64,000 nucleotides of DNA from Paracoccaceae bacterium (GTDB taxonomy: Bacteria; Pseudomonadota; Alphaproteobacteria; Rhodobacterales; Rhodobacteraceae): contig JAGWAS010000015.1 in assembly GCA_021296235.1 (NCBI GenBank), forward strand, positions 33,611 through 97,610. Reading direction: 5' to 3'. This document shows positions 33,007 through 58,099 of this stretch, piece by piece (position 1 is the stretch's first letter; every line of letters begins with the position of its first letter). The notes beneath the pieces were generated by a model. The model made no database searches. It was given only the letters and a program-made list of their open reading frames with translations, and was not told where the DNA came from. The position numbers were made by a program, and so were the translations under genes.

Positions 33007-33255
33007 TCACCGAAGCTCCTGTGCACGGGAGTGCGCTGACAAGCAAGAAATCATGATTTTGTCCAAAATTGATCCACCTGCCGGTCCCTTTGGATAATCT
33101 GAACTGTTGATGACACGGAACGGCAGACTGCCGATCACAAGCGATCTCGACCCATTCGAATGCCGGAAGTCATGAATTCGCACATCGTCAATTCTGAAAT
33201 GCAGCCGCAGATTTATCCCAGCCGAATTGAGAGTTTTATCAGGCTCAGAGCGCAC
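33007..33255 (-). pseudogene. Tyrosine recombinase (integrase), C-terminal remnant
   Basis: Residues 22-42 read RIDDVRIHDFRHSNGSRSLV, the box II HxLRH region of phage/ICE integrases (usual form VRIHDLRHSFASRAL). The catalytic Tyr segment and the N-terminal two thirds are missing. It sits at the distal end of the helicase/DotA block, where an element's integrase would be expected, suggesting the block is the remains of an integrated element. Confidence 0.55.
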
Positions 33256-33826
33256 GCAGCGATCTTTCGAGATCGCGGATCAGTTGTTCACAATTCCGGT
33301 TGACCAGCCTAACCGTGTCCACTCCCAAATTCGCAAGGTCGAGGACTTTGCGACTGTCGGACATGCTGCCTGCTCTTGCAATCGCTGCTTCAACCTGGAT
33401 GTGAAGGGTGCAGCGAGGTTCCGCCGCCTTGACCATCGGCATCACCTCATCGGCAAATCCGACGCCGGAGACAATCGAAACCCTGCCGATATCCCTGTTT
33501 CTGACGACCCGCCGACCGGCGACGACCCCAAGGTAACCGCTTCCGAATCTTGGTTTCATGATTTCCTCGCTGAACCTGATATATGCTTGACGCGGCGTCA
33601 AACCGCCGAATTGGGGCGCAGGCAAATCCTTCATATCCTCAAAATGAAGCGGCGGCAGATTGGTCCCGAGTCCATAGTGGTCATGCGTCATTCTCTTGAG
33701 ATTGTTGGACAGGGCAAAGTGATCGCCGTCAAGCCACCCCTTCAGGCAATTGCCGGCACGGTTCTTGCCGGCACGCGGTGGCCCTGAGACAAGGATCAAC
33801 TGATATCCGAACTGAATTTCGGTCAC
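33245..33826 (-). CDS. P-loop kinase-like protein (dNMP-kinase-like)
   Basis: 193 residues. An N-terminal Walker A (LILVSGPPRAGKNRAGNCL) is followed by GDHFALSNNLKRMTHDHYGL and RQAYIRFSEEIMKPRFGSGY, resembling phage-type deoxynucleoside monophosphate kinases. The exact substrate is unknown. It lies about 200 bp after the helicase gene in the same direction and may be co-transcribed with it. Confidence 0.65.
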   Translation of the reverse strand: MTEIQFGYQLILVSGPPRAGKNRAGNCLKGWLDGDHFALSNNLKRMTHDHYGLGTNLPPLHFEDMKDLPAPQFGGLTPRQAYIRFSEEIMKPRFGSGYLGVVAGRRVVRNRDIGRVSIVSGVGFADEVMPMVKAAEPRCTLHIQVEAAIARAGSMSDSRKVLDLANLGVDTVRLVNRNCEQLIRDLERSLRAL

Positions 33827-34028: not shown

Positions 34029-37000
34029 TCATGTCTCTGCTGCTGCGGCAATGTGCGACAATTCCATCTCTGGCGGAAGTCCGCCATGTTCCTCAATAAT
34101 GCGGGTCAGGGAATTGACACTGTTGCGGTTAACGCCATCCGTGAGCATGTCATGACCTTCGATCGCATTCAAAACGCGCTCCAATCCGTCCGGGTGTTCC
34201 GGCCAAGACAGCCTTAGCAGGGTTCTGCCGTTGAAATCGGCCTCCAATTGCGGAACCCCCTTGAGGAACGACCGTTTGGCATTAACGAATATGTTTCTGA
34301 TTTGTCTGCTGTCCTGCCAAGAAAAATTGGAAAAGCGGACGCTGAATTCCGGCCTCTCGCGCCTGCCGATCCATATCGTCAGATTGTTGAGACTGCGCCC
34401 TTCCAATCTTTCGGCTGCGAGGCCGACGGCAACCCTGCAGGAAGGCACGATCGCCGGCAGGCGATCAAGATCGACCTTTGACCTGTCCACCACAATGCCG
34501 CGCCGCATTTGACCTTCCATTTCGCGAAACAGACTCATGGTTCCGAGCTTGTGGCTCTGAGCCTCAGTGATCGCCGCCAGCAGATTGCCGCTTAGCACCT
34601 GCACCGGGTAGCGCCGACCCAAATTGAGCTGGTTCGCAAATTCCTGCATATGCAATTCGTTCACGCCCATTGAGAGGCCGGGGTGAATCCGCAGACCGTC
34701 CGGCCATGCCGCCAGCAGGCGCTTCAGCGTGTGAATCTCCGGCCTTCCGTCCCCAGGGCATACGGTCCGAACCCGGTAGGCCTGCGGAAGGTGCAGATGC
34801 TCTTCACGAGGCATGGTCAGCTTTACCACGGTTCGCAGAAGCCCGCTTATACCGCCATCCTCCCCGTCAATCTCCAAAACCACTCCTGGCCGGATCAATT
34901 GCAGCAGTTCAATGAATTTAACCAGGAGCGCATGACGGTTCCTGAGCAGATGAAATCGGTTCGGAGTCGCAAGCGCCTCTGCGATGGTCATTCCCGAAGG
35001 AACCAAATGTGCCAGAATTGTCGGCATCATCGTCTCAATGCGAGTTGCGTGGTTCGAAAATCCATCGGTTCCGTCGGTGATCCTCGACCTTTCAACCATC
35101 TGCAGCAGTTGGTCCCCGGTTATGGGCTCGTCATTCATGTGGTGCGTTCCGGTTGAAATGTAGAGCGGCGCAAAGAAGGCCGAGGTCTCCAGATCGGAGA
35201 TTTCGGTTTCAACTCCGGAAAACAACGTCGTCGCGTGAATCTCGACCTCTCCCGGCATTTCCTTCGGCCGCAGAGGGTTTGAATTCCGGCTTTCCAGTTC
35301 CTCAATAATCGCTTCGAATTCAATCGTGATGAGGTCCACAAGGCGTTCCTGGTCAGCGGCCGACAACACAAGGGATCGCGTCAGCGCCTTGTTGGCGATT
35401 GACTCAACCAAGCTCTTCGATGCCCCGGAATCGAACATCATCCAATCAAATTGGTTTTCGTCACCTTCATTGTCTCCCGAAAGAAACTCCGTGAAGCCAA
35501 GACGTCTCGCCAGATCCGGGTTCGAGCGCAGGATTTGCGCGGTCGCCCGATCTCCGACTCTGTTCAGAAGATCAGGAACATCGTCCATGAGCAGCGGATG
35601 AGACCTGTTTCCGTCGACACTGGCCCCAAGTGCCCTCAATTTTCGATTGCGCTGCTGGAGGATCCGCATTTCCGGAATGAGCCCGGTCAATACGGAAACA
35701 ATTCTTGGTTTGGCAATTTGGCCGTAGCGGTTTCCGCGTCCCTGCGACTGTATGTATTTGATGATGTCAACCGGTGTTTCCATCTCAATCAGCGTGCGGG
35801 GCCGCGGGTCGCCGAAATCCGGCGAAGCGTGATAGGAGCCACCGGTTGCGCCTGCTGAATTGTAGATCAGAACGTCAATGCCTCCGTCATTGAAGGCATC
35901 CACAACGGACCTTCGGTCGGACGCGCTGCGCCGAACAATGCGCCGATCCCTGTAGGCCAGGCTGCGCCCGGAGATCTCGCCGGCCACAAAGCCCAATTCA
36001 GCAAGCTTCTCAATCACAGAGTCGACCGGCGAAGCCGGAAGGTCGTCGGGCATCTCGGCAATCATGGAAGAAAGCCGGTGCGAAATGTTCCCAATCTCCC
36101 GGTCGCGCTGCCTTGCATCCTGAATCTGGTCATCAAGCTTGATTCGGAAAATGCTCTCTGCAACCCTTGCTATCTGATCCGACAGGGAGAGCTTCACATC
36201 GGGCGACGCCTGATTGTCGGCAGCAAGCTCATTGAACAGCGATGCCCCCGTGGAGTGGAAGGTAATCAGGGGTTTTCGGCCTTCATTGAGTTCGTTGACC
36301 GCCTCTTCGACAACCTGATCCACCTTGATGGCGTTTATTGTTACCCTCGCCAGCCGAACCAGAGGGCTGCCAATGGCACCGGAATATTGAAATAGTGCGT
36401 TGCATTGCGTGCGGGCAGTTTGCTCATCAACCCCATCATTGATCATTTGAGCATATCGTTGGCTCTGTGCCCTTCCGACGAGGGCACCGACCCGAAGCGA
36501 TGCATCAATCATGAGTTCAACCACCGGGGTCATCCGGTTCATGATCTCCTGATACGCGGCGATGCGGCCGTCGTCCGGCAGCCTGTATTCAAACTCCAGA
36601 TTGGACAGGTCGTGATCTCTGCGGAGGTAGGTGCCATCCTCGCCCAGCATGGTGGCGAAGCTCTCTTGCGCGGTTTCCCCGCCGGGAGCCAAGTCTGCCA
36701 GAATCCTGTCAAGCCGGCCGCCCTCGGCATCAGGCAAAAGTGGAATGTAAAGGTTCGCGCCGGCCGGATTTCGCATGGGCGTTGCAGTGGCATAGACGAC
36801 GTTCCTGCGTCCGACCAATTCGATCATGTTCCTGACCGCCTTGCCGGTATTGGAAGAAGGATTGATGGCGTTGTGGGACTCGTCGAGGATAAGAAGCGTA
36901 TGCACATCGGGTGCAGTCGAGGCCCAAGTTGCGGCGGGGCTGTCCGGACCGCGGCTGAAAAGGCTGTAGTTGGTCAGGATCATGTTGCAGCCCGGAGGCC

Positions 37001-38951
37001 ACTCGCCCGACTCGAAGACCACCTTCCTTTTGGCTGCCGCAAGAGCCGTGTAGCACTCCGGCCGTGACGTCTTGCCGGGCGGAACGCCCGACGATGCAAT
37101 TGTCGGCAGGTTCACCGGCTTGCCGGCAAGAACCACCGGCCTTATTTCGGCAAGGGCACCAACCGCTTCAAGATCCCGCCAGACATCCGGAATGTTGATC
37201 TCGGCATTCTCAGTCAAGTAGAGAACCCTCCCACCCTCGCGAATGTGCAGGCGAGCCATTGCCGCAAGGCTGCGTCCCTTGCCGATGCCGGTCTGGTCGC
37301 CGAGCAGGAACCCGCGATTCCTGGAACTTGCGGAATTTCGCATTGCCACCGCATCGACCTGCTCGGCCGTCAGCACCGATCCCAGCAGTTCAGGTGAAAT
37401 GCCGAGGGAATTGGCAACTGCTGTGTCGACACCTCCGAGTTTTTCGCAATCGGCGGCGACTCGTTGCAACGCCTTGGCAGTGGCACCGTCAAGCGATTTG
37501 GGAATCATGGTGAAGGGAGTAGTGGTCTGCGAAAGAGCCACATAGGGCCGCTGCCTCTCATTGTCCTCAAGCACGGACTCTCGTTGTCCGGCTGCTTTCC
37601 CAATTCCGCGATGCCAATCCCGGATCTTGCGCCGGGATCGAAGAATCTCAGTATGCAGCCTGTCCAAATCGTCCCTGCTGAACACCGAAAATGTACGGAG
37701 TGCCGCAAGCGGCAAACCTTCACTCAGCTCCGGTCGCCGTTCCCCGACCATGAAGAGGGTAACCGGTTCCTGTTCATGCCGACCGGTTGCAACAAGCGGG
37801 GATATCTCTGCAACCGTCTCCAGCGCGTAGCTCTTTCCGACCACCGATCTTGTTGTGGTGGCCTGTGCGCTTTCGGCGGATCCAGAAACAATCAACGTGC
37901 TGGACCCGTCATCACAACGGCCAGCAAGAATGTTGATCACCCTTTCACGAATTCCGGAAGCGGGTCCGGTGGTAAGGTCGCAGAGCTGATGCGAGACGTT
38001 TCCGCTTGCCTTCAAAAGCGGGGTCGCCAAGCCAAGCCTGCTGTTGCCCAAGAATTCAATCTCGGATGCAGTGATGTTGAGGCGCCTCAGAAAGATCAGC
38101 AAGCTGGCCGATGGGTTGAGTCCTTCAACGTCGGATCGATCCGGATCAATCACGGCGTGAGAGTTCTCGGCGAGCTTCATTGCCCTGCGATAGCTGTCTC
38201 GGGAGCCGTCCTCCTCCAAGGTCGCCTCAACGATTTGCTTTAGAAGCTCCTTCCGCAGCGCAATGGCCGCATCGAACCGGTCTTCCCGAACATCCGCCCC
38301 GGGCAGCGTCTCCTGCGCTGCAATTGCCACCCGCTGGAAATCAATCTCGGATACAGAACCAGTTTCCGCCATCGCCAAGAGGCCCGCGGCAATGGCAGGC
38401 AGGTCTCCGATCCCTTCGGACCGCAGGAATTCCGTCGCAAATTCACTTCCGGATTCACGAATGAATTCCGGTTTTCCGGCTTCGTTTCTGACCTTTCTTG
38501 ACCGGAAGCCATTTGCGTCTCGAAAGACACCCTCACCCCGAAAATTCCTGCCAATGAACTCTGGCCGCTGCGACGTCGCAATATTTCGGTAGCTGTTGGC
38601 CTTTCCCTTGTCCGGCGCAGTGTAGTCGATTGTCCAAGGATAGGATTCGAGCTTTTGCCGGGGCATCGTGTGAATGACCCCGCCGAGCATCTTCGCCAAG
38701 GCATCGGCATCAAACCGTGACCGGCGGGCGGGTGCCATCAAATAGAGATCACCCGTGTCCCCGAATTCCAGGAAGCCCGCTTCAAGCGCAAGGCGCCTGA
38801 CCTCCCTGCGCCTGCCTCGGCTTGTGAACTGAAGGAGCAGGCCCTTGGCGCCACTGGACCGAACCATCCTTCTCAGCACGGCGCAATTGTCGTTGAAGAC
38901 CACCCATTTGATGGATGCATCCCCGGAAGCGGGTCGCTTTGACACGCTCAC
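34029..38951 (-). CDS. Strawberry-notch-type SF2 helicase, very large
   Basis: 1640 residues. The helicase core lies in the middle: motif I FLLGDQTGIGKGRSLAAMAR (about residue 550), motif II LLILDESHNAIN (about 690), motif III YATATPMRNPAG, and in the second RecA lobe IYNSAGATGGSYHASPDF and QSQGRGNRYGQIAKPR (about 1070). This matches bacterial strawberry-notch (SBNO-like) proteins found on plasmids, phages and ICEs. The N-terminal 500 and C-terminal 450 residues match no domain I recognise. Probably acts in DNA handling of a conjugative or phage-like element, or in defence. No frameshift in 4.9 kb argues for recent function. Confidence 0.85.
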   Translation of the reverse strand: MSVSKRPASGDASIKWVVFNDNCAVLRRMVRSSGAKGLLLQFTSRGRRREVRRLALEAGFLEFGDTGDLYLMAPARRSRFDADALAKMLGGVIHTMPRQKLESYPWTIDYTAPDKGKANSYRNIATSQRPEFIGRNFRGEGVFRDANGFRSRKVRNEAGKPEFIRESGSEFATEFLRSEGIGDLPAIAAGLLAMAETGSVSEIDFQRVAIAAQETLPGADVREDRFDAAIALRKELLKQIVEATLEEDGSRDSYRRAMKLAENSHAVIDPDRSDVEGLNPSASLLIFLRRLNITASEIEFLGNSRLGLATPLLKASGNVSHQLCDLTTGPASGIRERVINILAGRCDDGSSTLIVSGSAESAQATTTRSVVGKSYALETVAEISPLVATGRHEQEPVTLFMVGERRPELSEGLPLAALRTFSVFSRDDLDRLHTEILRSRRKIRDWHRGIGKAAGQRESVLEDNERQRPYVALSQTTTPFTMIPKSLDGATAKALQRVAADCEKLGGVDTAVANSLGISPELLGSVLTAEQVDAVAMRNSASSRNRGFLLGDQTGIGKGRSLAAMARLHIREGGRVLYLTENAEINIPDVWRDLEAVGALAEIRPVVLAGKPVNLPTIASSGVPPGKTSRPECYTALAAAKRKVVFESGEWPPGCNMILTNYSLFSRGPDSPAATWASTAPDVHTLLILDESHNAINPSSNTGKAVRNMIELVGRRNVVYATATPMRNPAGANLYIPLLPDAEGGRLDRILADLAPGGETAQESFATMLGEDGTYLRRDHDLSNLEFEYRLPDDGRIAAYQEIMNRMTPVVELMIDASLRVGALVGRAQSQRYAQMINDGVDEQTARTQCNALFQYSGAIGSPLVRLARVTINAIKVDQVVEEAVNELNEGRKPLITFHSTGASLFNELAADNQASPDVKLSLSDQIARVAESIFRIKLDDQIQDARQRDREIGNISHRLSSMIAEMPDDLPASPVDSVIEKLAELGFVAGEISGRSLAYRDRRIVRRSASDRRSVVDAFNDGGIDVLIYNSAGATGGSYHASPDFGDPRPRTLIEMETPVDIIKYIQSQGRGNRYGQIAKPRIVSVLTGLIPEMRILQQRNRKLRALGASVDGNRSHPLLMDDVPDLLNRVGDRATAQILRSNPDLARRLGFTEFLSGDNEGDENQFDWMMFDSGASKSLVESIANKALTRSLVLSAADQERLVDLITIEFEAIIEELESRNSNPLRPKEMPGEVEIHATTLFSGVETEISDLETSAFFAPLYISTGTHHMNDEPITGDQLLQMVERSRITDGTDGFSNHATRIETMMPTILAHLVPSGMTIAEALATPNRFHLLRNRHALLVKFIELLQLIRPGVVLEIDGEDGGISGLLRTVVKLTMPREEHLHLPQAYRVRTVCPGDGRPEIHTLKRLLAAWPDGLRIHPGLSMGVNELHMQEFANQLNLGRRYPVQVLSGNLLAAITEAQSHKLGTMSLFREMEGQMRRGIVVDRSKVDLDRLPAIVPSCRVAVGLAAERLEGRSLNNLTIWIGRRERPEFSVRFSNFSWQDSRQIRNIFVNAKRSFLKGVPQLEADFNGRTLLRLSWPEHPDGLERVLNAIEGHDMLTDGVNRNSVNSLTRIIEEHGGLPPEMELSHIAAAAET

Positions 38952-39022
38952 CCTCCAACTGGAAGGGCTTCAAGCCGGCGATGCTGCCCCGATTGTGGCC
39001 GCAAGCCCCAACCGGCCGACCA

Positions 39023-40387
39023 TCAAAAATCCAAATGTCCGCCGTCTTCCGGTTCGATCCTATCGTTCACTTCCCTGAACACACCTTCAACGCGCTTGGC
39101 ACTTTCAGGACCGGAGGGTGCCTTCTTCGCATGTTCGGCGACATTGTCAATCCCGATCCCGGGCGAAACACTGCTGTCCGGACCATCGGGAAGGACTTCG
39201 AGAGCATGCGCAACAGCCCGCGAAATCGTTGCATGAAATCGCGACACCGCCTTCGGATCGGATGGGGTCGGAACAGCATTCCTTGGCACCGCCGCGCTCA
39301 TTGTCCGGGCCTTCGCCAGAAAGCTGCCGGCGGACGGATCCGCCCCGTACGGCTTGAGCACTGCCGTCGACACCGCAAACCCGTATCTTGCGACACGTGG
39401 AAGCGTAATCCCCATATTGCTGAAGAAGCGTTCAACATCGCAGTTCCAGACACCCTTCCAGCCGATTGACGCAAATGCCGATTTGGCATTGGGATGAGCC
39501 TGCGCAAGAAAGGCGGCCTCCAGCCGGGCCGCATCAGGGGAATCCAGGCGCCGGAGCGTACCCTCGATTCTGGCACCCAGGCCTCCGGTCTGAAAGCTCT
39601 TCAGCGGGATTGCACTCCTTAGCCCGAGATCCATCGACTCGGCGACCTTCGAACCGACTTTCACCACCTCCATCGGAATGACGTCGATCACCCCTCCGGC
39701 CTCATAGACCTGCCTGAACTTCGAAACCGGATTGACTGCAAAGAACCGCTGCAGCGCTTCATCAACCGGAGCCGGTTCACCGTCGCTCCAGCCGCGCAGT
39801 GCTGACAGGGTCTTTCTGCTGACACCCTGCTCGGTCTGTAAAACAACTGCCAACGCCGCAGCACCGGAACACTTCATAGCTGCAGCCAGTGTTTCGCGCA
39901 TGGCCCCCAGTTCCGAGGTTTGCTCGGATCCACCCATGTGCATCAGGAATCCGTTGTAGATGGTTGCGCCGTTCGATCGGAATTGCCTGACACTTCCGTC
40001 GGCGCCAATTGATGGAGAAACCTGCATCGGAATTCCTGCCCTCAGGTCGGCACCGGGATCACCCATCTTGTTGATCCATTGTGCGGTGAACCTGCCACCA
40101 TCAACCCGAAGGTTCTCAAGTGCGAGATAACCTCCCGGTGAAGTCCGAACCATACTCGTTTCGTCCTGAAGATCCGCAACGGTCGAAACACTCGAATTGG
40201 TGGGGGTGATGCGCGTCCATGCATCAATTCGCCTCCCGTCCAGTTGCCCACCCATTACGGTTCCGGAAATGACGCCAGGATGGCAATCTTCGCAAACGGC
40301 ATCGCCATCGTAGGATTCCACCCTGAGCACGATATTGCCGATCGGTCGCGACGGACCCGCCGGCGTTGCATTTGAAACTCTTTTCAT
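39023..40387 (-). CDS. Conserved-looking protein of unknown function
   Basis: 454 residues with no recognised domain. The N-terminus has a CxxC pair (VCEDCHPGVISGTVMGGQLD) in a beta-rich region; the middle is mixed (SALRGWSDGEPAPVDEALQR) and the C-terminus is Pro/Ser/Lys-rich and probably unstructured. No signal peptide or membrane helix. It lies between the helicase and DotA-like genes in the same direction (71 bp and 234 bp gaps), so it is probably part of the same element's machinery. Confidence 0.7.
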   Translation of the reverse strand: MKRVSNATPAGPSRPIGNIVLRVESYDGDAVCEDCHPGVISGTVMGGQLDGRRIDAWTRITPTNSSVSTVADLQDETSMVRTSPGGYLALENLRVDGGRFTAQWINKMGDPGADLRAGIPMQVSPSIGADGSVRQFRSNGATIYNGFLMHMGGSEQTSELGAMRETLAAAMKCSGAAALAVVLQTEQGVSRKTLSALRGWSDGEPAPVDEALQRFFAVNPVSKFRQVYEAGGVIDVIPMEVVKVGSKVAESMDLGLRSAIPLKSFQTGGLGARIEGTLRRLDSPDAARLEAAFLAQAHPNAKSAFASIGWKGVWNCDVERFFSNMGITLPRVARYGFAVSTAVLKPYGADPSAGSFLAKARTMSAAVPRNAVPTPSDPKAVSRFHATISRAVAHALEVLPDGPDSSVSPGIGIDNVAEHAKKAPSGPESAKRVEGVFREVNDRIEPEDGGHLDF

Positions 40388-40621
40388 TGATTGCCTCTTC
40401 CGGTCTGCGCGGGCTTGACCGCCCGATTGACCGGGAGACTCTTCGGGTCAGCCGGTGAAAATCGAAAGCGCAGCTGTCACGATTGGCGCATTCCCTGTTG
40501 AAAACCCTTCGAGTGCATTGGCTGAGGCACCTTCTGCGCCTCCATGTTTCTCACACTCTCGAAAGCCGTGCGGGCATGGTCCGGCAGGTTTAGTCCGGCT
40601 GCTGGTTTTGGAAATGCAACG

Positions 40622-42853
40622 TCAAAGCCGGGCCGGAACGAGTCGGCCCAACTGTCGCGTTGCGGATGCGACTGATGTGGACATCAGCGATGCAGAGGCA
40701 CGGAACTGCCGTTCTCCTGAACCGTCTCCCACGCCAGCGGCAGCACCGACCCATTTTAGGATCCGGTCCGGAAAATCCGCAATGAGGGAAAAACTCCTTT
40801 CAATGATCACAATATGTGCCGCGACGGAAAGAAAGCCGGTGGCAATCAGCCCAAATACCCCAACTATCGGGGAGGCGGAAACAAGAGCGCCCATGGCGAA
40901 GTGCATGCCAAGGTCGAGCAGCCCTGCAACAACCCGGTAGATCACCATGCCGAGAAAATATCCCATGATCATGAGTGCCGGGGTGAGCACGAGCGCAAGC
41001 AGCATGAGCCAACCCTGACGGCCGGCATCCCCTGAGATGCCGTCGCCGTCCAGCCGAAAATGCATCAGGGCCCAAAGGGTCGCAGCAATCACCGCCTCGG
41101 CGACAAGGAGGAAGTATCCGGCGATGCCAAGAATCCAGTAGATGAACGGAAGCATCGGAATGATGAAAGATTGCGCAATCCCGATCGCCGCCATTGGAGC
41201 GGCGATCATGAACACAATTGTCGTTCCGGCACCACCGGAGAAAAGTGAAACCGTTGCACCACCAAAGATCAGGACACCTGCCGCCTCAAGGAACCAGTTG
41301 CCCATGTTGACCAGTCCAACGATCGGATCGCGGCCAAAACCGGCGGGTGAGAGCATTCCCAGAAGAGATTCAATGTCGTCGGCAAACCCGACCTGCCAAA
41401 TGCGGCCGAGAAGGCCGGTCGGGCCGGCAGGCAATGCATCTTCAATGATCCTGCCGGGCAAGCCCATGCCGAGCGGTGCCAGCCTCGCTGCAGCGGACTC
41501 CAATCCTGCATTGGCTGCGGTCCAGATCCGGCCAGCCTCCTCCACATGCATGTATTTGTTCACGTCGGACTTGCCAAACAGGTCGGAGAACCATCCGGAT
41601 GCGTCGGCCGCTGATACGACCTGCTTGTTTAACCTGCGCCAATTTTCCGCAACATATCCCGACTCTGATGCGGTGATTGATGCGTTCATCATTCCCATCA
41701 GTTCCGAATTCAACCGTGCAAGGGTCATGTGCCAGTTGCCCGCTCCGACCCAACCCTCGCCGCCACAGCCCGAATTCCTGACGCAAATGCCTGTCATGAA
41801 ATCGCCTATGGCCTGCCTTGCTGCGCCCCGTTCCCCCTCGCTTCCGGCAACCACGCGGATCAGGCGATGGTTGCCGTCTTTCAATGTGCTGTTTATGCGC
41901 GCAAGCGTCTCCCTGATGTCGCCGGAAATGTCGGGCACCTCCGGATTGCCCACCAGAACAGCCGGCCACTGCCGGGAGATCGCTCTGTTCGATCCGTCAA
42001 TGACGATCTCAAGTATTTCGGCGTGCAGGGCCCGGAATTCCCGCGCCACATCGGAACCGGCATCGGAACGGCCGCCGGAAAGATGGTTCGGCAAGGTTGG
42101 AATTGCGTATGCACCACAGATCTCCGGATTTCTGCCTCCCAGAGATGAGACAACACGAACTGAGTCCCTAACCTCAACCCGTTCAAAGCGAACGCGAAGC
42201 GGACTTCGGGCCGCCTCCAACTGGTGGTTGGCCAGCCAGGCACAAAGCTGGTTGCGATAGACCGTTTTGAACAGTTCGCCGTCAAAGCGAGCCGAAACCC
42301 CTGAAATCGGCAGATCACCGGACACCAGGAGGCCCGCGCCGAGGCCCCAAAGTTCCGAGGCCATCATCGTCGATCCCTTCACGATCCATGCAACTCCGGC
42401 CTGAACCGAATTGTAGCCGCCAAGACCGGGGACGGGAATCAGGAGTGCAACCGCAAAGATCACCCTCAGCGGTGCCCAGAGTGAGGACCAGCGGCGACCA
42501 AGCACCTCACCCTCATGGGCTGATTGAAGAACGCCCGCCACAATGCTCCAAGCAAACAGGAGACCACCAATGGCAAGAACCGCGACGTTGAGGTTGCCGG
42601 CGAGGACGGAAATCGCGGTCGATGAAACCGAGCCTGATTCCGCCGGAAACAGGGAACCAAAAATCCTGTTGAGCAGATTTGCGCTGTTTGCATCGCCGTA
42701 TTGTGTTCCGAAAATCCCGGAAAGGTCGCCGGACATCAACGTTTGGGAATTCTCCTGGGAAAGTGACTGTCGGGGACAGATTGCGGCAACTACTGCAACC
42801 GCATACCCGATGGCACGGCAATACGGTCTCTGACCGGAATGGGAATTGTCCAT
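40622..42853 (-). CDS. DotA/TraY-family membrane protein (type IVB secretion)
   Basis: 743 residues. A signal-like N-terminus (AIGYAVAVVAAICPRQSLSQ), a membrane pair with the family segment EGEVLGRRWSSLWAPLRVIF and GGYNSVQAGVAWIVKG, a large soluble (periplasmic) part at about 180-480, then at least four further helices (FLEAAGVLIFGGATVSLFSG, MLPFIYWILGIAGYFLLVAE). DotA/TraY proteins are inner-membrane parts of IncI-type conjugation and Dot/Icm systems. None of the other Dot/Icm genes is in the window, so it is either an orphan or linked to genes elsewhere. Confidence 0.82.
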   Translation of the reverse strand: MDNSHSGQRPYCRAIGYAVAVVAAICPRQSLSQENSQTLMSGDLSGIFGTQYGDANSANLLNRIFGSLFPAESGSVSSTAISVLAGNLNVAVLAIGGLLFAWSIVAGVLQSAHEGEVLGRRWSSLWAPLRVIFAVALLIPVPGLGGYNSVQAGVAWIVKGSTMMASELWGLGAGLLVSGDLPISGVSARFDGELFKTVYRNQLCAWLANHQLEAARSPLRVRFERVEVRDSVRVVSSLGGRNPEICGAYAIPTLPNHLSGGRSDAGSDVAREFRALHAEILEIVIDGSNRAISRQWPAVLVGNPEVPDISGDIRETLARINSTLKDGNHRLIRVVAGSEGERGAARQAIGDFMTGICVRNSGCGGEGWVGAGNWHMTLARLNSELMGMMNASITASESGYVAENWRRLNKQVVSAADASGWFSDLFGKSDVNKYMHVEEAGRIWTAANAGLESAAARLAPLGMGLPGRIIEDALPAGPTGLLGRIWQVGFADDIESLLGMLSPAGFGRDPIVGLVNMGNWFLEAAGVLIFGGATVSLFSGGAGTTIVFMIAAPMAAIGIAQSFIIPMLPFIYWILGIAGYFLLVAEAVIAATLWALMHFRLDGDGISGDAGRQGWLMLLALVLTPALMIMGYFLGMVIYRVVAGLLDLGMHFAMGALVSASPIVGVFGLIATGFLSVAAHIVIIERSFSLIADFPDRILKWVGAAAGVGDGSGERQFRASASLMSTSVASATRQLGRLVPARL

Positions 42854-50804: not shown

Positions 50805-52313
50805 TCAGGAGGCGTGCTCCGGCAGTGCCTCCGGACACGGATACAGTTTGTCCATCCGGACCGACCTGCCATCCGACAGCACCAGGCGAACATGCTCCCG
50901 AGTCATCAGGCGAGGTCTGACAACGCCGCATGAATGGGAAATCATCTGCACTTCCCGGATGACCTTCCTGCAATAGTTGGCAACCCGCACGGATTTTTCC
51001 GTCGGATCAAGTCCTTTCTGCAATCTCGCATTGTGAGTGGTAACTCCGGTGGGACACGTGTTCCTGTTGCATTTGAGAGATTGAATGCACCCAAGGGAGA
51101 ACATGAACCCGCGTGCGGAAGTCACAAAATCGGCACCGGTCGCAATTGCCCATGCCACCTCCGCCGGCGTGATGAGCTTGCCGGACGCAATCAACCTGAC
51201 CCGCTCACCCAAACCGTATTTGTGGAGCGTGTTGGAGGTCAGGGGCAGCGCCTCCTTCACCGGAAGGCCCACATTGTCCATCAACGGCATCGGTGCAGCA
51301 CCAGTTCCGCCATCGCCGCCGTCAACCGCAATGAAGTCGGGAGCGCTCTCGGAACCCCGGGCGCGGATCTCCCTGCACATGTCCTCAAGCCAACCAGTGT
51401 CTCCCACAACAGTCTTGAAACCGACGGGCTTTCCCGAAACGTCGCGAATGCGCTCAATGAAGTCGAGCAATTGCGGAATGTCCTGAATTTCCGGATGCCG
51501 GTTGGGTGATATCGAGTCCTGACCCTCGGGGATGCCCCGGATTGCGGCAACCTCCGAGTTCACCTTTGCGCCCGGAAGAATGCCCCCCTTACCCGGTTTT
51601 GCACCTTGACTTAGCTTCAGTTCGAACATTCGAACATTTTCGTGGGACGCGATTTCGCGCAACTTTTCGTCGCTCATTTTGCCGTCGAGGTCTCGCACCC
51701 CGTATTTTGCGGTCCCGATCTGGAAAACAATGTCGCAGCCACCCTCCAGATGGTGCTTTGACAATCCGCCCTCACCGGTGTTCAGCCAGCAGCCCGCCAA
51801 GGTCGCACCCTTCGACAGCGCCCTGACGGCCGGCGTCGAAAGTGCCCCGTAGCTCATTCCGGAGATGTTGAAAAAGGAGGGCGCGTTGTATGGATGCCGA
51901 CAGTTCTCTCCTATCAACATCGGAACCATTTCCACGGCGTCCTGCGTAAGGGTTGGGAACGGGCAATTCACAAAGATCGCCGTTCCCGCCGGTGTCAGGT
52001 TTTTCGTCGAACCGAAGGCAACGGTGTTGTCGAGGCTCCTTGCCGACCGGTCAACCCAGTCCCGCTCGGCGCGATTGAATGGCATCTCCTCCCTGTCAAG
52101 TGCGAAGAAATACTGGCGAAAGAACTCGCCAAGCATTGAGAACAGATATCGGAACCTGCCAATGACGGGGTAGTTGCGTCGGACGGCATCGCGCGTCTGG
52201 CTGACATCAAGAATGAACAGCACCGCTGCCACCGCGACGGCCAAACCGACAAAAAATATGAAGAGTGCGGAGAGGAATTCGATACCACCCATAACGAAGC
52301 TGTTCAGGATCAT
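50805..52313 (-). CDS. FMN-binding glutamate-synthase-family protein
   Basis: 502 residues. One or two N-terminal membrane helices (FLSALFIFFVGLAVAVAAVL FIL) precede a GltB-type FMN barrel: GMSYGALSTPAVRALSKGAT, NTGEGGLSKHHLEGG, SQGAKPGKGGILPGAKV, AVDGGDGGTGAAPMPLMDNV. The cluster motif GCIQSLKCNRNTCPTGV suggests a 3Fe-4S centre. The glutaminase domain of true GOGAT is absent; such stand-alone proteins may be membrane-linked amidotransferase or N-methylglutamate-synthase-like enzymes. A GGGAGGAA site supports the start. Confidence 0.9.
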   Translation of the reverse strand: MILNSFVMGGIEFLSALFIFFVGLAVAVAAVLFILDVSQTRDAVRRNYPVIGRFRYLFSMLGEFFRQYFFALDREEMPFNRAERDWVDRSARSLDNTVAFGSTKNLTPAGTAIFVNCPFPTLTQDAVEMVPMLIGENCRHPYNAPSFFNISGMSYGALSTPAVRALSKGATLAGCWLNTGEGGLSKHHLEGGCDIVFQIGTAKYGVRDLDGKMSDEKLREIASHENVRMFELKLSQGAKPGKGGILPGAKVNSEVAAIRGIPEGQDSISPNRHPEIQDIPQLLDFIERIRDVSGKPVGFKTVVGDTGWLEDMCREIRARGSESAPDFIAVDGGDGGTGAAPMPLMDNVGLPVKEALPLTSNTLHKYGLGERVRLIASGKLITPAEVAWAIATGADFVTSARGFMFSLGCIQSLKCNRNTCPTGVTTHNARLQKGLDPTEKSVRVANYCRKVIREVQMISHSCGVVRPRLMTREHVRLVLSDGRSVRMDKLYPCPEALPEHAS

Positions 52314-52453
52314 CGAAATTCCTCCCTGTTTTTTTTGGTTGCGGCCTATGCCTGTCCTACCGGCGGCTGCACCAATTGGCAGACCCGGTGCAACAATTCA
52401 GGATTTTCCTGCTGCAGTCCGACAAGCCATTGCGTCCCTTCATTGGACATTCC

Positions 52454-53254
52454 TCATTCCAACCCCAACGACAGCAGCCTCTCTTCGACCCTTGCGATGT
52501 CGTCGGGATTGTTGACCTCCCAGAAGAGGTTATGCGCCGCCTCGACCTCCACGCAGAGCACATCCATGCCATGCTCAAGGAAGCGAAGCTGCTCCAGCCC
52601 CTCGCATGCCTCAAGCACGCCCGGCTTGCACCGGCAGTACCAGCGCAGCGCCTCGGGCGTGTAACCATAGACCCCGGCATGATGAAACACCGGGAAGGGA
52701 TCATCGGAAATGAAACTGAAACCGGTCCAGGGAATGATCTCCTTGGAAAAATAGAGGGCACGGTTTCTGGCATTGAACACAGCCGTTGTACCGCCCACGC
52801 GATTGTTTCTCCGGTCTTCCGCGAACCCCTCAAGTGTTTTGCGGTCGAAACGAACGACAGGGGTTGCAACCTGCACACCAGGGTCGGCCCGCATTGCCTC
52901 AATCAGGCTCTCGACAAAAGAGGGCGGGGTGAGCGGTGCATCTCCCTGCAAATTGATCACAATGTCATGGCGTCCGCCTAACCGCTCGATGGCTGCAAAG
53001 CATCGTTCGGTTCCGTTTCTGCAGGTCGGGCTGGTCATCACACATTCACCGCCGAACGCTTCAACCGCGTCGCGGATGCGTATGTCGTCGGTGGCAACCA
53101 CCACCCGGTCAACCCCGCGGGTGGCGGCTGCGGCCTCCCAGGTTCGCTGAACAAGCGTCCTTTCGAGGCCGGTCGCCCCGCGCAGCATCTCAAGCGGCTT
53201 TCCGGGAAACCTCGAAGAGGCAAAACGGGCCGGTATGACGATCAGGACCGACAT
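52454..53254 (-). CDS. kdsB: 3-deoxy-manno-octulosonate cytidylyltransferase
   Basis: 266 residues, normal length. IPARFASSRFPGKPLEMLRG holds the nucleotide-binding RxxxxRxPxKPL loop, RNGTERCFAAIERL and VINLQGDAPL the CTP/metal site. It activates KDO as CMP-KDO for lipopolysaccharide synthesis in the cytosol. The next gene in the same direction is cysQ, starting 12 bases upstream of its ATG side. This pair is common in Rhodobacterales-like genomes. Confidence 0.94.
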   Translation of the reverse strand: MSVLIVIPARFASSRFPGKPLEMLRGATGLERTLVQRTWEAAAATRGVDRVVVATDDIRIRDAVEAFGGECVMTSPTCRNGTERCFAAIERLGGRHDIVINLQGDAPLTPPSFVESLIEAMRADPGVQVATPVVRFDRKTLEGFAEDRRNNRVGGTTAVFNARNRALYFSKEIIPWTGFSFISDDPFPVFHHAGVYGYTPEALRWYCRCKPGVLEACEGLEQLRFLEHGMDVLCVEVEAAHNLFWEVNNPDDIARVEERLLSLGLE

Positions 53255-53265
53255 TCAACAATCAC

Positions 53266-54057
53266 TTAGACAACTGTTCCGGGAGCATGAGCAATGAACC
53301 CGGGATTTTCGAATCCAGGTTTTCCGTATTCAAGCACCCGCCTGTCATCAAACCGCACTAGCCTCCCTCCAACCGCCCTCAATATGGCATGACCAGCCGC
53401 CGTATCCCACTCCATTGTACGCCCAAATCTCGGATAAAGGTCCGCTTCGTGCGCCGCAATCAGGCAAAACTTGATTGAGGACGACATGACCTCGACATTC
53501 CTTACTTGAATTCCCTTGAGAAAATCCGCCATGCGGCTGTCGGAGCGAAGAGCTCGCGATGCCACCACCCGGACCGCGGAATTGTTGCGTCCCGACACCG
53601 CGTGCCGGGCAACAACACGGCATGACGAAGCTTCGGGATCAACGCTGCGTTCAACCACCTTTCCGCCCGCATCAGTGCAAAAATGGCGACCCATGGCAGG
53701 TGCATGAACAACGCCCATGACCGGAATTCCGTCTTCGATCAGCGCAATGTTGACCGTAAACTCCGTTTTCCTGCGCCGAAATCCACTTGTGCCGTCAAGC
53801 GGATCAACCAGAAAGAACCGGCTTGCGCTCCCCGCATGGCTGCCCGAATTCTCCTCGCTGACAACAAGGGTGCCGGGGAATGCCTGCTTCAGCCCTTCTC
53901 TGATCAACTCGTCCGCGGCCAGGTCGGCGGCTGTAACCGGGCTTCCGTCATCCTTCCAACTGGTTTCGATCTCAGGTGCATTGAAAGCGTCAAGAATCAA
54001 TGAGCCTGCCCGCAGCGACAGATCAATGAATGTTTCCTCAACCGCCGAATAATCCAT
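53266..54057 (-). CDS. cysQ: 3'(2'),5'-bisphosphate nucleotidase
   Basis: 263 residues from ATG 54057 (MDYSAVEETFIDLSLRAGSL); the track start is 85 codons upstream in non-coding sequence. Li-sensitive phosphatase motifs are FLVDPLDGTSGF and WDTAAGHAILRAVGG, with SEENSG for metal binding. It hydrolyses PAP to AMP, clearing an inhibitor made during sulfate assimilation. Note that SlcC/ComDE-type sulfonate genes lie 4 kb away, though not linked as an operon. Confidence 0.92.
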   Translation of the reverse strand: MDYSAVEETFIDLSLRAGSLILDAFNAPEIETSWKDDGSPVTAADLAADELIREGLKQAFPGTLVVSEENSGSHAGSASRFFLVDPLDGTSGFRRRKTEFTVNIALIEDGIPVMGVVHAPAMGRHFCTDAGGKVVERSVDPEASSCRVVARHAVSGRNNSAVRVVASRALRSDSRMADFLKGIQVRNVEVMSSSIKFCLIAAHEADLYPRFGRTMEWDTAAGHAILRAVGGRLVRFDDRRVLEYGKPGFENPGFIAHAPGTVV

Positions 54058-54170
54058 CCGTTGCGCTTCCGTCGGGCATCCCTTCCTGTTCACTACAGCT
54101 CCGGCCGGAAAAATTGCACCCCAATTTTGTATTGGACCAACGGCACCGGCAACGCGGTTGCACCAAAGGC

Positions 54171-54797
54171 TCATCCTGCAACCCGAAGTGTCAGGTTCAG
54201 CCTGCCACCCTTGGCAAGAAGCCGCGAGGTGCCGAATTTGATCCTGTCGACCCCGTGATGCAACAGCCGAGCCGAGCCGCCCATCACAACCACATCGCCG
54301 GATCGGAGCCAAACCGATTCCGTCGTGCCTCCCCGGGTTTTGTTGCCGACCCGAAACAGCGCATCATCGCCGAGCGATATCGATACAACCGGCCAGGCAA
54401 GGTTGGCCTCGTCGGCATCCTGATGCATCCCCATGCGGGCGTTTTGTCCATAAAGATTGACGAGGCAGGAATCCGGCTCCGTTTTGCATTCCGCAATCCT
54501 TCGCCAGACATCAAGGACCGACTCCGGAATTGGAGGCCACGGCCTTCCGGATGGATGCGTCGGCTGGTAGCGATATCCCTTCCGGTCGGCAACCCATCCG
54601 AGTGAGCCCGCGGATGTCATCCGCACGGACATTCTTTTTCCCGAAGGCGTTACCGGCTCAAACAGCGGTGCCGCAGCTGCCACATCGCGGATATCGTCAA
54701 TAATTCGAAACTGCTCCGGTTCCGTCAGCAGGGCACTGAAGAATCTGAAGCCGCGGATCGTGCGGGAACCTGCATCCCCATTGGTGTTGCCATGCAT
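54171..54797 (-). CDS. alkB: AlkB-type 2-oxoglutarate/Fe(II) dioxygenase (DNA dealkylation)
   Basis: 208 residues from ATG 54797, which has GGAG six bases upstream; TTG 54836 is the track start. Iron ligands are in GMHQDADEANL (HxD) and RLLHHGVDRIKFGTS (His), the 2-oxoglutarate Arg in GGRLNLTLRVAG; NLYGQNARMG is the family's substrate-strand motif. It repairs 1-methyladenine and 3-methylcytosine in DNA by oxidative demethylation. Divergent from dnaK. Confidence 0.92.
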   Translation of the reverse strand: MHGNTNGDAGSRTIRGFRFFSALLTEPEQFRIIDDIRDVAAAAPLFEPVTPSGKRMSVRMTSAGSLGWVADRKGYRYQPTHPSGRPWPPIPESVLDVWRRIAECKTEPDSCLVNLYGQNARMGMHQDADEANLAWPVVSISLGDDALFRVGNKTRGGTTESVWLRSGDVVVMGGSARLLHHGVDRIKFGTSRLLAKGGRLNLTLRVAG

Positions 54798-54850
54798 GCC
54801 TGACTCCAGCATCGCGCCGAGGCCGCCCAAAATCAAAATTCCGGCGAATT

Positions 54851-54880
54851 CTTGATGGAAGGGTATCGCACACCTATATA
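54851..54880 (+). promoter_or_regulatory. Probable dnaK promoter (sigma32-like)
   Basis: CTTG at 54851, 18 bases, then CCTATATA at 54873: close to the alphaproteobacterial heat-shock consensus CTTG-N17/18-CYTATNT. The same element can be read as a housekeeping promoter (TTGATG, 17 bases, TATATA). No CIRCE inverted repeat is present. It lies about 100 bases before the dnaK start. Confidence 0.6.
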
Positions 54881-54978
54881 GCGCGCCGTGATGGTGACCA
54901 CCATCTTCGCAATCTACCGAGATCCGGCCGTTCCGCGTTTAAGGCCCGCGTAGATGGAGGTTTGGAAAGGAATTTGAA

Positions 54979-56919
54979 ATGAGCAAAGTAATCGGAATCG
55001 ATCTGGGAACCACGAACTCGTGCGTAGCAATCATGGATGGCTCTCAGCCGAAGGTCGTTGAGAATTCGGAAGGCGCAAGGACGACGCCCTCAATCGTGGC
55101 CTTCACCGACAATGAGCAACTGGTGGGACAACCGGCAAAGCGCCAAGCCGTAACAAATGCCAGCAACACAATTTTTGCGGTCAAGAGACTTGTCGGCCGC
55201 CGGTTCGATGATGCGGATCTGGCAAAGGACAAAAAGAACCTCTCTTATGAGGTTGTTGACGGCGGTAACGGCGATGCATGGGTCAACGTCAAGAGCGAAA
55301 AATACTCACCGTCGCAGATTTCAGCCGCCATTCTCCAGAAGATGAAGGAAACCACCGAGAGCTATCTCGGCGAAACGGTTTCCCAAGCCGTAATTACGGT
55401 TCCCGCCTATTTCAATGACGCGCAACGTCAGGCGACCAAGGACGCCGGCAAAATTGCCGGACTTGAGGTGCTTCGCATCATCAATGAGCCGACGGCGGCG
55501 GCGCTTGCCTACGGTCTCGACAAGAAGGAAAACAAGACCATCGCCGTCTATGACCTTGGGGGTGGCACCTTCGACATCACAATCCTTGAGATTGATGAGG
55601 GGCTGTTCGAGGTCAAGGCAACGAATGGTGACACCTTCCTCGGGGGCGAGGATTTCGACATGTGCATCGTCAAGCACCTCGCCGATCAGTTCAAGAAGGA
55701 ACACGGCGTCGACCTGACCAAGGACAAAATGGCGCTTCAGCGGCTCAAGGAGGCCTCGGAGAAGGCCAAGATCGAACTGTCCTCCAGCCAGGAAACGGAA
55801 ATCAACCAACCGTTCATCTCCATGGATCCGAGAGGAGGTCAGCCGCTTCACCTCGTAACCAAGCTGACGCGGGCGAAGCTTGAAGGTTTGGTCGGCAGCC
55901 TCATCAAGAAATCCCTGAAACCCTGTGCGGCGGCCCTCAAGGACGCGGGCCTCTCAAAAACCAACATCGACGAGGTCGTGCTGGTCGGCGGAATGACCCG
56001 TATGCCCAAGGTGATCGAAGAGGTTTCCCAATTCTTCGGAAAGGAACCCCACAAGGGCGTGAATCCGGACGAGGTCGTTGCCATGGGCGCGGCCATCCAG
56101 GCGGGTGTCCTCAGGGGAGATGTGAAGGACGTTGTTCTTCTGGATGTAACCCCGCTTTCGCTTGGCATCGAAACTCTCGGTGGCGTGTTCACCCGTCTGA
56201 TTGAGCGCAACACCACGATCCCAACCAAGAAATCCCAGATATTCTCGACCGCCGAGGACAACCAGAGCGCCGTTACCATCAGGGTGTTTCAGGGCGAAAG
56301 GGACATGGCCGAGCACAACAAGATGCTGGGACAGTTCAATCTTGAACAGATCCCGCCGGCACCGCGCGGCATGCCGCAGATCGAAGTTGCATTCGACATT
56401 GATGCCAATGGCATTGTTTCCGTGTCGGCAAAGGATAAGGGCACCGGCAAGGAGCAGAAGATCACCATTCAGGCATCCGGAGGTCTCTCCGATGATGACA
56501 TCGAACAAATGATCGCTGACGCCGAAGCCAATGCCGAGGCCGACAAGGAACGCAAGCTTCTGGTCGAAACCAAGAATCAGGCGGAATCGCTGGTTCATTC
56601 GACACGCAAGAACCTTGAGGAGCATGGCGACAAGGTCGATCCCGCAACCGTCGAAGCGATTGAGCTTGCCATGAAGGCACTTGAAGAGCAAAGGGAGACA
56701 GATGACGTCGAAAAGATCAAGGGCGGCATCCAGAACCTGACCGACGCTGCCATGAAACTGGGTCAGGCAATCTATGAAGCTGAGATGAAGGAATCGGCTG
56801 AAGCGGCCGAGGCTGGCGAAGGAGAGGCAGAGAATGAAGCTGGAACCGATGCCGGAGAGGACGTCGTGGATGCCTATTTCGAGGATGTCGAGGACGAGAA
56901 AAAGGGCAAGAAGGGCTGA
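54979..56919 (+). CDS. dnaK: Hsp70 chaperone DnaK
   Basis: 646 residues, full length. ATPase-domain signatures [32 protein letters not shown] and [20 protein letters not shown]; substrate-binding domain from about residue 390 and a helical lid to 605. The acidic C-terminal tail ends [12 protein letters not shown] rather than the common EEVDD-K form. Cytosolic chaperone working with DnaJ (next gene) and GrpE. Ribosome site GGAAAGGAA. Confidence 0.98.
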
Positions 56920-56968
56920 ACGAACGGCCTGAAGCCCGCATCTCAGCCGCTGACGCTCCAGGTGTCGA

Positions 56969-58099
56969 ATGGAAAAGCGCGACTTTTATGAAACTCTGGG
57001 AGTCCCTCGAGGGGCATCAGGGGACGAAATAAAGAAGGCATATCGCCGCAAGGCGCGCGAATTGCATCCGGATCAGAACAAGGACAATCCCCAGGCGGAA
57101 TCACACTTCAAATCCGTCAACGAAGCCTATGACGTGCTCAAGGACCCGCAGAAGAAAGAACTCTATGACCAGTTCGGCCACAGCGCGTTCGAAGGCGGCG
57201 GTCCCTCCGGTTCAGCAAACTTCTCGTCGGCATTTTCCGATGTGTTTGAGGATTTTTTCGGGGATTTGATGGGCGGTGGCCGGCGGCAGGGCCGGCGCGG
57301 ACAAGGCAATCGCGGTTCCGACCTGCGCTATGATGTCGGGCTGGAACTTGAGGAAGCCTTCACCGGTGTTCGAAAACGGATCACCGTTCCCGGCTCGATA
57401 TCCTGCGAATCCTGCAACGGAATGGGAACAGAGGGAGGATCCGCTCCCAGCACCTGCCCAACATGTTCGGGTGCCGGCAAGGTGCGTGCTCAGCAGGGCT
57501 TCTTCACCATGGAACGCACCTGCCCGACATGCTCGGGCGCCGGACAGGTCATTCGAAATCCCTGTTCCCACTGCGCCGGAGCCGGAAGAGTCAGGAAGGA
57601 TCAAAGCTTGGACGTCGACATTCCGAAGGGTGTCGAAACCGGATCCCGCATAAGACTCAGCGGCAAGGGGGAAGCCGGTCTGCGCGGCGGCCAGAATGGC
57701 GACCTCTATATTTTCGTGACCGTCAGAAACCACGAGGCGTTCGAGCGATCCGGCGATGACATCCATCATGTTGCGAGAGTTTCCATGCCACAGGCTGCAC
57801 TCGGATGCGACATTCAAATCCCGACCATTGACGGCGGTGTTTCCAAGGTCCGAATTCCAGCAGGAAGCCAACCCGGAAAGCGATTGCGGCTTTCCCGAAA
57901 GGGAATGCCATCGCTCAGAGACCGAAACTCCACACGGGGTGACATGTATGTCACACTGTCCGTCGAAACCCCGACCGACCTTTCAGCCGAGCAGAAAAAG
58001 CTGCTGGAACGATTTGAGGAACTGTCTCAGTACAAGCATGCCAAGGACGCCTCACTTGGAGAAAAAGTCAAGGGATTGTGGGACGATCTGAAGGGTTGA
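56969..58099 (+). CDS. dnaJ: Hsp40 co-chaperone DnaJ
   Basis: 376 residues. J domain with HPD in RELHPDQNKDN (about residue 32), a Gly/Phe-rich region, four zinc-binding repeats (CESCNGMG, CPTCSGAG, CPTCSGAG, CSHCAGAG at about 145-205) and C-terminal substrate-binding beta domains. It delivers clients to DnaK and stimulates its ATPase. Follows dnaK by 49 bases with no terminator seen, so the two probably form one heat-shock transcript. Confidence 0.98.
   Translation: MEKRDFYETLGVPRGASGDEIKKAYRRKARELHPDQNKDNPQAESHFKSVNEAYDVLKDPQKKELYDQFGHSAFEGGGPSGSANFSSAFSDVFEDFFGDLMGGGRRQGRRGQGNRGSDLRYDVGLELEEAFTGVRKRITVPGSISCESCNGMGTEGGSAPSTCPTCSGAGKVRAQQGFFTMERTCPTCSGAGQVIRNPCSHCAGAGRVRKDQSLDVDIPKGVETGSRIRLSGKGEAGLRGGQNGDLYIFVTVRNHEAFERSGDDIHHVARVSMPQAALGCDIQIPTIDGGVSKVRIPAGSQPGKRLRLSRKGMPSLRDRNSTRGDMYVTLSVETPTDLSAEQKKLLERFEELSQYKHAKDASLGEKVKGLWDDLKG

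What the first reader, a model, noticed from the sequence alone, without database searches (positions are those of the whole stretch)
34029..42853. Strawberry-notch helicase, unknown 454-residue protein and orphan DotA/TraY in one block
Three large intact co-directional genes: a 1640-residue SF2 helicase with long unassigned N- and C-terminal regions, an unknown protein with an N-terminal CxxC, and a type IVB secretion membrane protein without any other dot/icm gene nearby. Large intact frames in an otherwise eroded neighbourhood imply selection. The set could be the cargo or DNA-processing end of a conjugative element, or a stand-alone DNA-uptake/defence module using a DotA-like pore.
Basis: partly seen in the sequence, partly recalled or inferred. 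Interest (0 to 1): 0.7.

Follow-up and report, generated by a model that had tools for sequence, protein, structure and literature searches.

The report
Piece of a scattered chromosomal transfer machine
Three genes that looked like an orphan block are one fragment of a conjugation-type (IncI/Dot-Icm-like) transfer machine whose parts are scattered over the chromosome and kept at the same addresses by several Rhodobacteraceae, probably sponge-associated, which suggests a transfer machine that the host has kept as its own.

Summary
The three genes are real, intact and under purifying selection: DotA/TraY, an uncharacterised 454-residue protein and a Strawberry-notch (SBNO) helicase. A dNMP kinase gene (33245-33826) belongs with them. 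They are not an orphan module. The same genome holds dotO-dotN 10 kb left of the window, and dotH-dotG, icmT-dotB-dotC and a TrbC-like coupling protein on other contigs. Six related genomes show the same dispersed layout; on a closed 3.64-Mb chromosome the parts span two regions about 0.5 Mb apart. Islands keep chromosomal addresses: the dotA block sits beside dnaK in the window, G061 and G062. So this is a chromosomally fixed, scattered MPF-I (R64/Dot-Icm-type) system with, in relatives, a type IVb pilus. No MOBP, MOBQ or MOBF relaxase was found in the window's genome; a conserved tyrosine recombinase beside dotB-C-D is a candidate. The SBNO N-terminus resembles N6-adenine methyltransferases but lacks the catalytic motif. 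Most likely function (inferred): the DNA-handling end of a conjugation-type machine; DNA versus protein export is undecided. A 2011 survey called scattered T4SSs rare (Rickettsiales) and chromosomal MPF-I essentially Legionella/Coxiella.

The parts
40622..42853 (-). dotA/traY: polytopic inner-membrane protein of an MPF-I (type IVB) transfer system, 743 aa
   Evidence: TIGR04346 220.7 bits, cut-off 100; NF033886 (Legionella-type DotA) 162 bits, far below its cut-off of 500. Homologues 48-54% identical in six relatives.
39023..40387 (-). 454-residue protein of unknown function, always found with an SBNO gene beside or near it in this clade; no library match
   Evidence: Homologues in six other species; directly upstream of SBNO in six of seven species, loosened by inserted genes in G001. 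AlphaFold pLDDT only 55.8; CxxC not conserved.
34029..38951 (-). SBNO (Strawberry-notch) SF2 helicase/translocase, 1640 aa
   Evidence: PF13872 residues 519-788, PF13871 residues 1015-1220; 48-51% identical homologues in six relatives.
37392..38951 (-). N-terminal region of the SBNO protein (residues 1-520), containing a fold like type I restriction-modification N6-adenine methylases, without the [NDS]PP[YFW] catalytic motif
   Evidence: Model pLDDT 74.2; Foldseek best 3lkd E 2.2e-4 prob 1.00, also 2f8l, EcoR124I, EcoKI; motif absent here and in five relatives, present as NPPF in Pseudomonas and Xanthomonas plasmid homologues.
35292..37397 (-). helicase core of the SBNO protein (AAA_34 and Helicase_C_4 domains)
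   Evidence: Pfam matches; Walker A GIGKGR at residue 555, DESH at 690, GRGNR at 1071.
33245..33826 (-). deoxynucleoside monophosphate kinase, 193 aa, last gene of the block
   Evidence: phrog_139 E 2.7e-20; downstream of SBNO in G001, G002, G003, beside the dotO island in G061.
50805..58099 (.). chromosomal address marker, not part of the machine: glutamate-synthase-like, kdsB-like, inositol-phosphatase and AlkB-like genes followed by dnaK and dnaJ
   Evidence: Same neighbours beside dotA in G061 and G062 (with dnaK) and G002 (kdsB-like and inositol-phosphatase genes abut dotA).

Best explanation
The block is one of about five islands that together encode a nearly complete MPF-I type IV secretion (conjugation-type) machine, fixed in the chromosome of this Rhodobacteraceae lineage. 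SHOWN: DotA, DotO, DotN/IcmJ, DotG, DotH, a TraQ-like protein, IcmT, DotB, DotC and a TrbC-like coupling protein are encoded in the same genome, and in relatives also IcmL/DotI, DotD and PilN-PilS of a type IVb pilus; islands keep chromosomal addresses; the proteins are under long-term purifying selection. INFERRED: DotA/TraY is the inner-membrane part of the channel; the SBNO protein, a translocase with a probably dead adenine-methylase domain, acts on the DNA being transferred, like the DarB-type proteins of mobile elements; the 454-aa protein is its cytosolic partner; the dNMP kinase and the DnaG-zinc-finger protein support second-strand synthesis; a conserved tyrosine recombinase beside dotB-C-D stands in for the missing relaxase. 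Because its parts are dispersed, the machine cannot move itself as a unit and probably serves the host, exporting chromosomal or co-resident mobile DNA to neighbours.
For: Own genome: DotH/DotG/TraQ-like on C1, DotO/DotN on C34, coupling protein on C1, IcmT-DotB-DotC on C42. Same islands in G001, G002, G003, G017 and on one closed chromosome, G061. Conserved addresses at dnaK, at an exonuclease/SIS-CBS pair and at an alcohol dehydrogenase gene. Purifying selection. DNA-handling genes retained with it: SBNO, dNMP kinase, DnaG zinc finger, tyrosine recombinase. SBNO genes lie in the dot/icm regions of Pseudomonas and Xanthomonas MPF-I plasmids.
Against: No MOBP, MOBQ or MOBF relaxase in the window's genome. 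IcmL/DotI not found in the window's own genome (the assembly is 91% complete and the dotH contig is cut just there). No oriT known. No experiment of any kind; T4SSs without a relaxase are usually protein exporters (PMC3158045).
Confidence: 0.62

Rival explanations
1. The machine is a domesticated protein-secretion T4BSS (works like Legionella Dot/Icm) that delivers proteins into the animal host or into other bacteria; the DNA-handling genes are leftovers or serve something else.
For: No standard relaxase; relaxase-less chromosomal T4SSs are mostly protein exporters and chromosomal MPF-I is typified by Legionella/Coxiella (PMC3158045); MAG names suggest animal-associated bacteria.
Against: Helicase, dNMP kinase, DnaG-type protein and a tyrosine recombinase are co-conserved with the machine in several species; the DotA is TraY-like in score, 162 bits on the Legionella-type model against a cut-off of 500.
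Confidence: 0.25
2. The islands are the decaying remains of an integrated conjugative plasmid or ICE and have no present function.
For: Dispersal with unrelated genes inserted between parts; MOBF fragments in G002 and G061.
Against: Intact frames in seven species with third codon positions near saturation; conserved addresses, so the dispersal is old.
Confidence: 0.06
3. The three genes form a stand-alone DNA-uptake or defence module using a DotA-like pore.
For: The three genes are adjacent in the window, G017, G061 and G062; very weak DrmD match of the helicase (E 0.007).
Against: The block was seen only in genomes that carry the rest of the T4BSS; no PADLOC match worth the name; the helicase's plasmid relatives lie in MPF-I regions.
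Confidence: 0.04

Closest known systems
I-type (MPF-I) conjugative plasmids: Shinella NZ_CP132309, Martelella NZ_CP054859, and the R64/IncI prototype
   Same: Same core parts: IcmT, DotB, DotC, DotD, IcmL, DotH, DotG, DotO, DotA; 28-30% identical DotA. R64's thin type IVb pilus (own knowledge) matches the PilN-S genes of the relatives.
   Different: Plasmid genes lie in one or two clusters on a replicon, Shinella with a TraA relaxase; here five dispersed chromosomal islands, no MOBP/MOBQ relaxase, and dotA followed by 454-SBNO.
pND6-2-type and Xanthomonas MPF-I plasmids
   Same: SBNO helicase gene preceded by a gene of about 430 codons in the dot/icm region; a tyrosine recombinase next to dotD-C-B-icmT in pND6-2
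   Different: Plasmid SBNO keeps the NPPF methylase motif; the 433-aa protein could not be shown to be homologous to the 454-aa one; dotA is not next to SBNO; on plasmids.
Legionella/Coxiella Dot/Icm
   Same: Chromosomal MPF-I system split over separate regions
   Different: DotA far below the Legionella-type cut-off; DNA-handling genes and PilN-S genes kept with it; no effector searched for.
Rickettsiales vir T4SS
   Same: Vertically kept and scattered on the chromosome (PMC3158045)
   Different: VirB/VirD4-type (own knowledge), not MPF-I.
Phage P1 DarB and related methylase-helicase polyvalent proteins (PMC5512222)
   Same: Adenine-methylase fold followed by an SF2 helicase; Strawberry-notch-like helicases occur in a few of them
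   Different: Methylase motif lost; no evidence that this protein is transferred.

Membership tests
MPF-I / type IVB secretion system | DotA/TraY | tested here: met
   TIGR04346 220.7 bits, cut-off 100
MPF-I / type IVB secretion system | DotO/TraU ATPase | tested here: met
   C34:23239-26193, E 1e-193 to the Martelella DotO/TraU
MPF-I / type IVB secretion system | DotG, DotH and IcmL/DotI core | tested here: inconclusive
   DotG and a truncated DotH at the edge of C1; IcmL absent from the assembly but present in all six relatives
MPF-I / type IVB secretion system | DotB ATPase, DotC, IcmT | tested here: met
   C42:56197-59445
MPF-I / type IVB secretion system | Coupling protein of the TrbC/DotL kind | tested here: met
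   C1:41650-44661, NF041447 E 4e-93 though 313 bits is below its cut-off of 800
Conjugative plasmid or ICE | One contiguous, self-mobile unit | tested here: not met
   Parts dispersed over a closed chromosome; conserved addresses
Conjugative plasmid or ICE | Relaxase of the MOBP, MOBQ or MOBF family | tested here: not met
   None in the window's genome; partial unlinked matches in G001, G002, G061 only. MOBH, MOBC, MOBV not tested
Legionella-type Dot/Icm effector secretion | DotA of the Legionella kind (NF033886) | tested here: not met
   162 bits against a cut-off of 500
Legionella-type Dot/Icm effector secretion | IcmS/IcmW chaperones and effector proteins | not tested
   -
DarB-like methylase-helicase dyad | Adenine-methylase fold fused to an SF2 helicase | tested here: met
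   Foldseek 3lkd E 2.2e-4, prob 1.00; PF13871/PF13872
DarB-like methylase-helicase dyad | Catalytic [NDS]PP[YFW] motif of the methylase | tested here: not met
   Absent in the window protein and five relatives; present in plasmid homologues
Tyrosine-recombinase-like relaxase (MobK, TcpM, MpsA; PMC8152469), for the 467-aa protein beside dotB-C-D | Catalytic R, K, HxxR, GH and Y residues | tested here: inconclusive
   Pattern visible in the alignment of four species, but N replaces the first H in the window's genome; Pfam match below cut-off
Tyrosine-recombinase-like relaxase (MobK, TcpM, MpsA; PMC8152469), for the 467-aa protein beside dotB-C-D | Site-specific nicking at an oriT | not testable with these tools
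   Needs biochemistry

The most novel reading that the evidence does not exclude
A host-owned, Hfr-like DNA-exchange machine: a dispersed, vertically kept MPF-I apparatus that cannot mobilise itself, nicks chromosomal DNA with a tyrosine-recombinase relaxase, and exports host DNA accompanied by a pseudo-methylase SBNO helicase and the 454-aa partner, a conjugative counterpart of gene transfer agents.
Probability: 0.25. Interest if true: 0.82.

Novelty: new variant of a known kind. Interest (0 to 1): 0.6.

Why it matters
A 2011 survey called scattered chromosomal T4SSs rare (Rickettsiales) and chromosomal MPF-I systems essentially Legionella/Coxiella (PMC3158045). This would be a separate lineage, in Rhodobacteraceae that are probably sponge symbionts, and cluster-based detectors would miss it: a sponge-MAG survey reported that few lineages encode secretion systems (PMC8163846). 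It bears on when a conjugation apparatus becomes a host organelle, and it makes a tyrosine recombinase a concrete relaxase candidate for MPF-I plasmids of the pND6-2 type, to which typing assigns no relaxase.

Tried and rejected
(1) Truncated IncI plasmid: rejected by the closed chromosome. (2) Homology of the 454-aa protein to the 433-aa protein upstream of SBNO in Pseudomonas/Xanthomonas plasmids: similar by eye, but profile-profile comparison failed with one sequence (E 0.06), with four (E 0.24) and on re-run; kept only as a positional analogy. (3) Structure of the 454-aa protein: pLDDT 55.8, no Foldseek match below 0.001; weak SSB/OB-type hits not used. (4) Functional CxxC: not conserved. 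(5) Defence system: PADLOC gave only a 12-bit DrmD match. (6) Viral or plasmid origin of the 454-aa protein: no relatives found. (7) A single-sequence search of genome contigs found nothing; the alignment query found 6 loci. The Pil genes were not searched genome-wide in the window's own genome.
Full report
WHAT IS THERE. The window is bases 33611-97610 of contig C34 of a 3.16-Mb, 42-contig assembly, 91% complete. On the minus strand it holds, in transcription order, DotA/TraY (743 aa), a 454-aa protein, an SBNO helicase (1640 aa) and, about 200 bases on, a 193-aa protein. DotA is secure (TIGR04346, 220.7 bits), as is the helicase (PF13871, PF13872). The 193-aa protein is a dNMP kinase (phrog_139 E 2.7e-20). 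The 454-aa protein matches no library. Its family was found in 5 of 61 genomes searched among relatives, counting the window's own, and in 6 loci of the GTDB r220 genome scan, all Rhodobacteraceae/Paracoccaceae MAGs. Across seven species the proteins are conserved while third codon positions are near saturation, so the genes are real and selected.

NOT AN ORPHAN. The same genome encodes dotO, a 489-aa protein, dotN/icmJ and a small gene conserved in the plasmid clusters at C34:23239-28973, about 10 kb left of the window's first dot gene-free stretch (its left edge), followed by GcrA-like and DnaG-zinc-finger genes. DotH (cut by the contig end), DotG, a 676-aa protein and a TraQ-like protein open contig C1. 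Two further conserved T4BSS proteins and a TrbC-like coupling protein lie at C1:39528-44661. IcmT-DotB-DotC lie on C42 at 56-59 kb, next to a tyrosine recombinase. G001-G003 and G017 show the same islands, with IcmL and, in G001-G003, PilN-O-P-Q-R.

A CLOSED CHROMOSOME SETTLES THE LAYOUT. In OY282431.1 (3,644,635 bases, G061) the system occupies 2.898-2.919 Mb (pil, IcmL, DotH, DotG, TraQ), 2.967-2.986 Mb (coupling protein, IcmT-DotB-C-D, recombinase, DnaA_C-type protein), 3.464-3.472 Mb (DotO island with the kinase) and 3.518-3.526 Mb (SBNO-454-DotA). The islands keep addresses. dotA lies 5-12 kb from dnaK, in the same relative orientation, in the window, G061 and G062; in G002 it abuts the kdsB-like and inositol-phosphatase genes that flank dnaK elsewhere. 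The dotO island lies near an exonuclease gene and a SIS/CBS isomerase gene in G000, G001 and G061. The dotH island lies near an 87-91% identical alcohol dehydrogenase gene in G000-G003. In the window about 8 kb of other genes (nucleotidyltransferases, ferric-reductase-like, TRAP transporter) separate dotA from those neighbours. The simplest reading is that the system entered the chromosome before these species split. G003 carries a second, plasmid-like T4BSS on C142/C38 and G025 a distant one.

WHAT THE HELICASE IS. Residues 1-520 were modelled from seven homologues (pLDDT 74.2). Foldseek's best hits are type I restriction-modification methylases (3lkd, E 2.2e-4, prob 1.00, TM-scores low at about 0.25). 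Plasmid relatives carry the catalytic NPPF there (pND6-2 position 395, Xanthomonas 354); the window protein, five relatives and Bosea do not. So it has the architecture of a methylase-helicase dyad, of which DarB is the archetype (PMC5512222), with a probably dead methylase. In Pseudomonas and Xanthomonas MPF-I plasmids an SBNO gene, preceded by a gene for a protein of about 430 aa, lies near the dot/icm genes. Whether that protein is homologous to the 454-aa one could not be shown.

RELAXASE. No MOBP, MOBQ or MOBF match in the window's genome; unlinked partial matches elsewhere. Divergent to dotB-C-D sits a tyrosine recombinase with a conserved R, K, HxxR, GH and Y pattern, N replacing the first H in the window's genome. 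pND6-2, to which MOB-suite assigns no relaxase, has a related recombinase next to dotD-C-B-icmT. Tyrosine-recombinase relaxases exist (MobK, TcpM, MpsA; PMC8152469; PMC12857230). This is a candidate, not a demonstration; a superfamily match alone would also fit an integrase.

FUNCTION. Shown: a mostly complete, dispersed, conserved MPF-I machine. Inferred: DNA transfer, because helicase, dNMP kinase, DnaG-type protein and recombinase are retained with it. The main rival is protein secretion, the usual reading of T4SSs without relaxases (PMC3158045). Sequence cannot decide. The link to sponges rests on MAG names (CAR, COS, RHO, APA) that resemble sponge species in PMC8163846; it is an inference, and the source of the window's own assembly is not known.

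NOVELTY. PMC3158045 (2011) found chromosomal MPF-I essentially in Legionella and Coxiella and scattered T4SSs only as a rare, mainly Rickettsiales, condition. I found no report of a scattered MPF-I system in Rhodobacteraceae in the held library, which is not exhaustive.

Noticed in passing
L074:1650-4661 (G000:C1:41650-44661) and homologues in G001-G003, G017, G061, G062: The TrbC-like coupling protein carries an apparent intein in its Walker A motif (GTTGAGK|ALPLDTLVLTTEGW ... ATHN|TELLLG). The C-terminal HN-[ST] junction is visible in all seven genomes, the N-terminal junction by pattern in G000 and G017.
   Followed up: partly
L042 (G003:C142) and L043 (G003:C38): G003 holds a second, diverged, more plasmid-like T4BSS (IcmL 39% identical, with DotM and a second DotA) besides the dispersed one.
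   Followed up: partly
window 42956-44509 and 44812-45906: Two neighbouring plus-strand genes beside dotA, a 517-aa protein without Pfam match and an NTP_transf_8 nucleotidyltransferase; not found beside dotA in relatives.
   Followed up: no
L004:15044-16764 (G000:C34:29043-30763): A GcrA-like 126-aa protein and a DnaG-zinc-finger protein (446 aa) run divergently beside the dotO island and are conserved with it in G002, G003, G017 and G061.
   Followed up: partly
L076:828-2081 (G001) and homologues in G000:C42, G002:C5, G061, G017:C37: A protein of about 330-420 aa with a DnaA C-terminal DNA-binding domain, far below the DnaA cut-off, lies near the dotB-C-D island.
   Followed up: no
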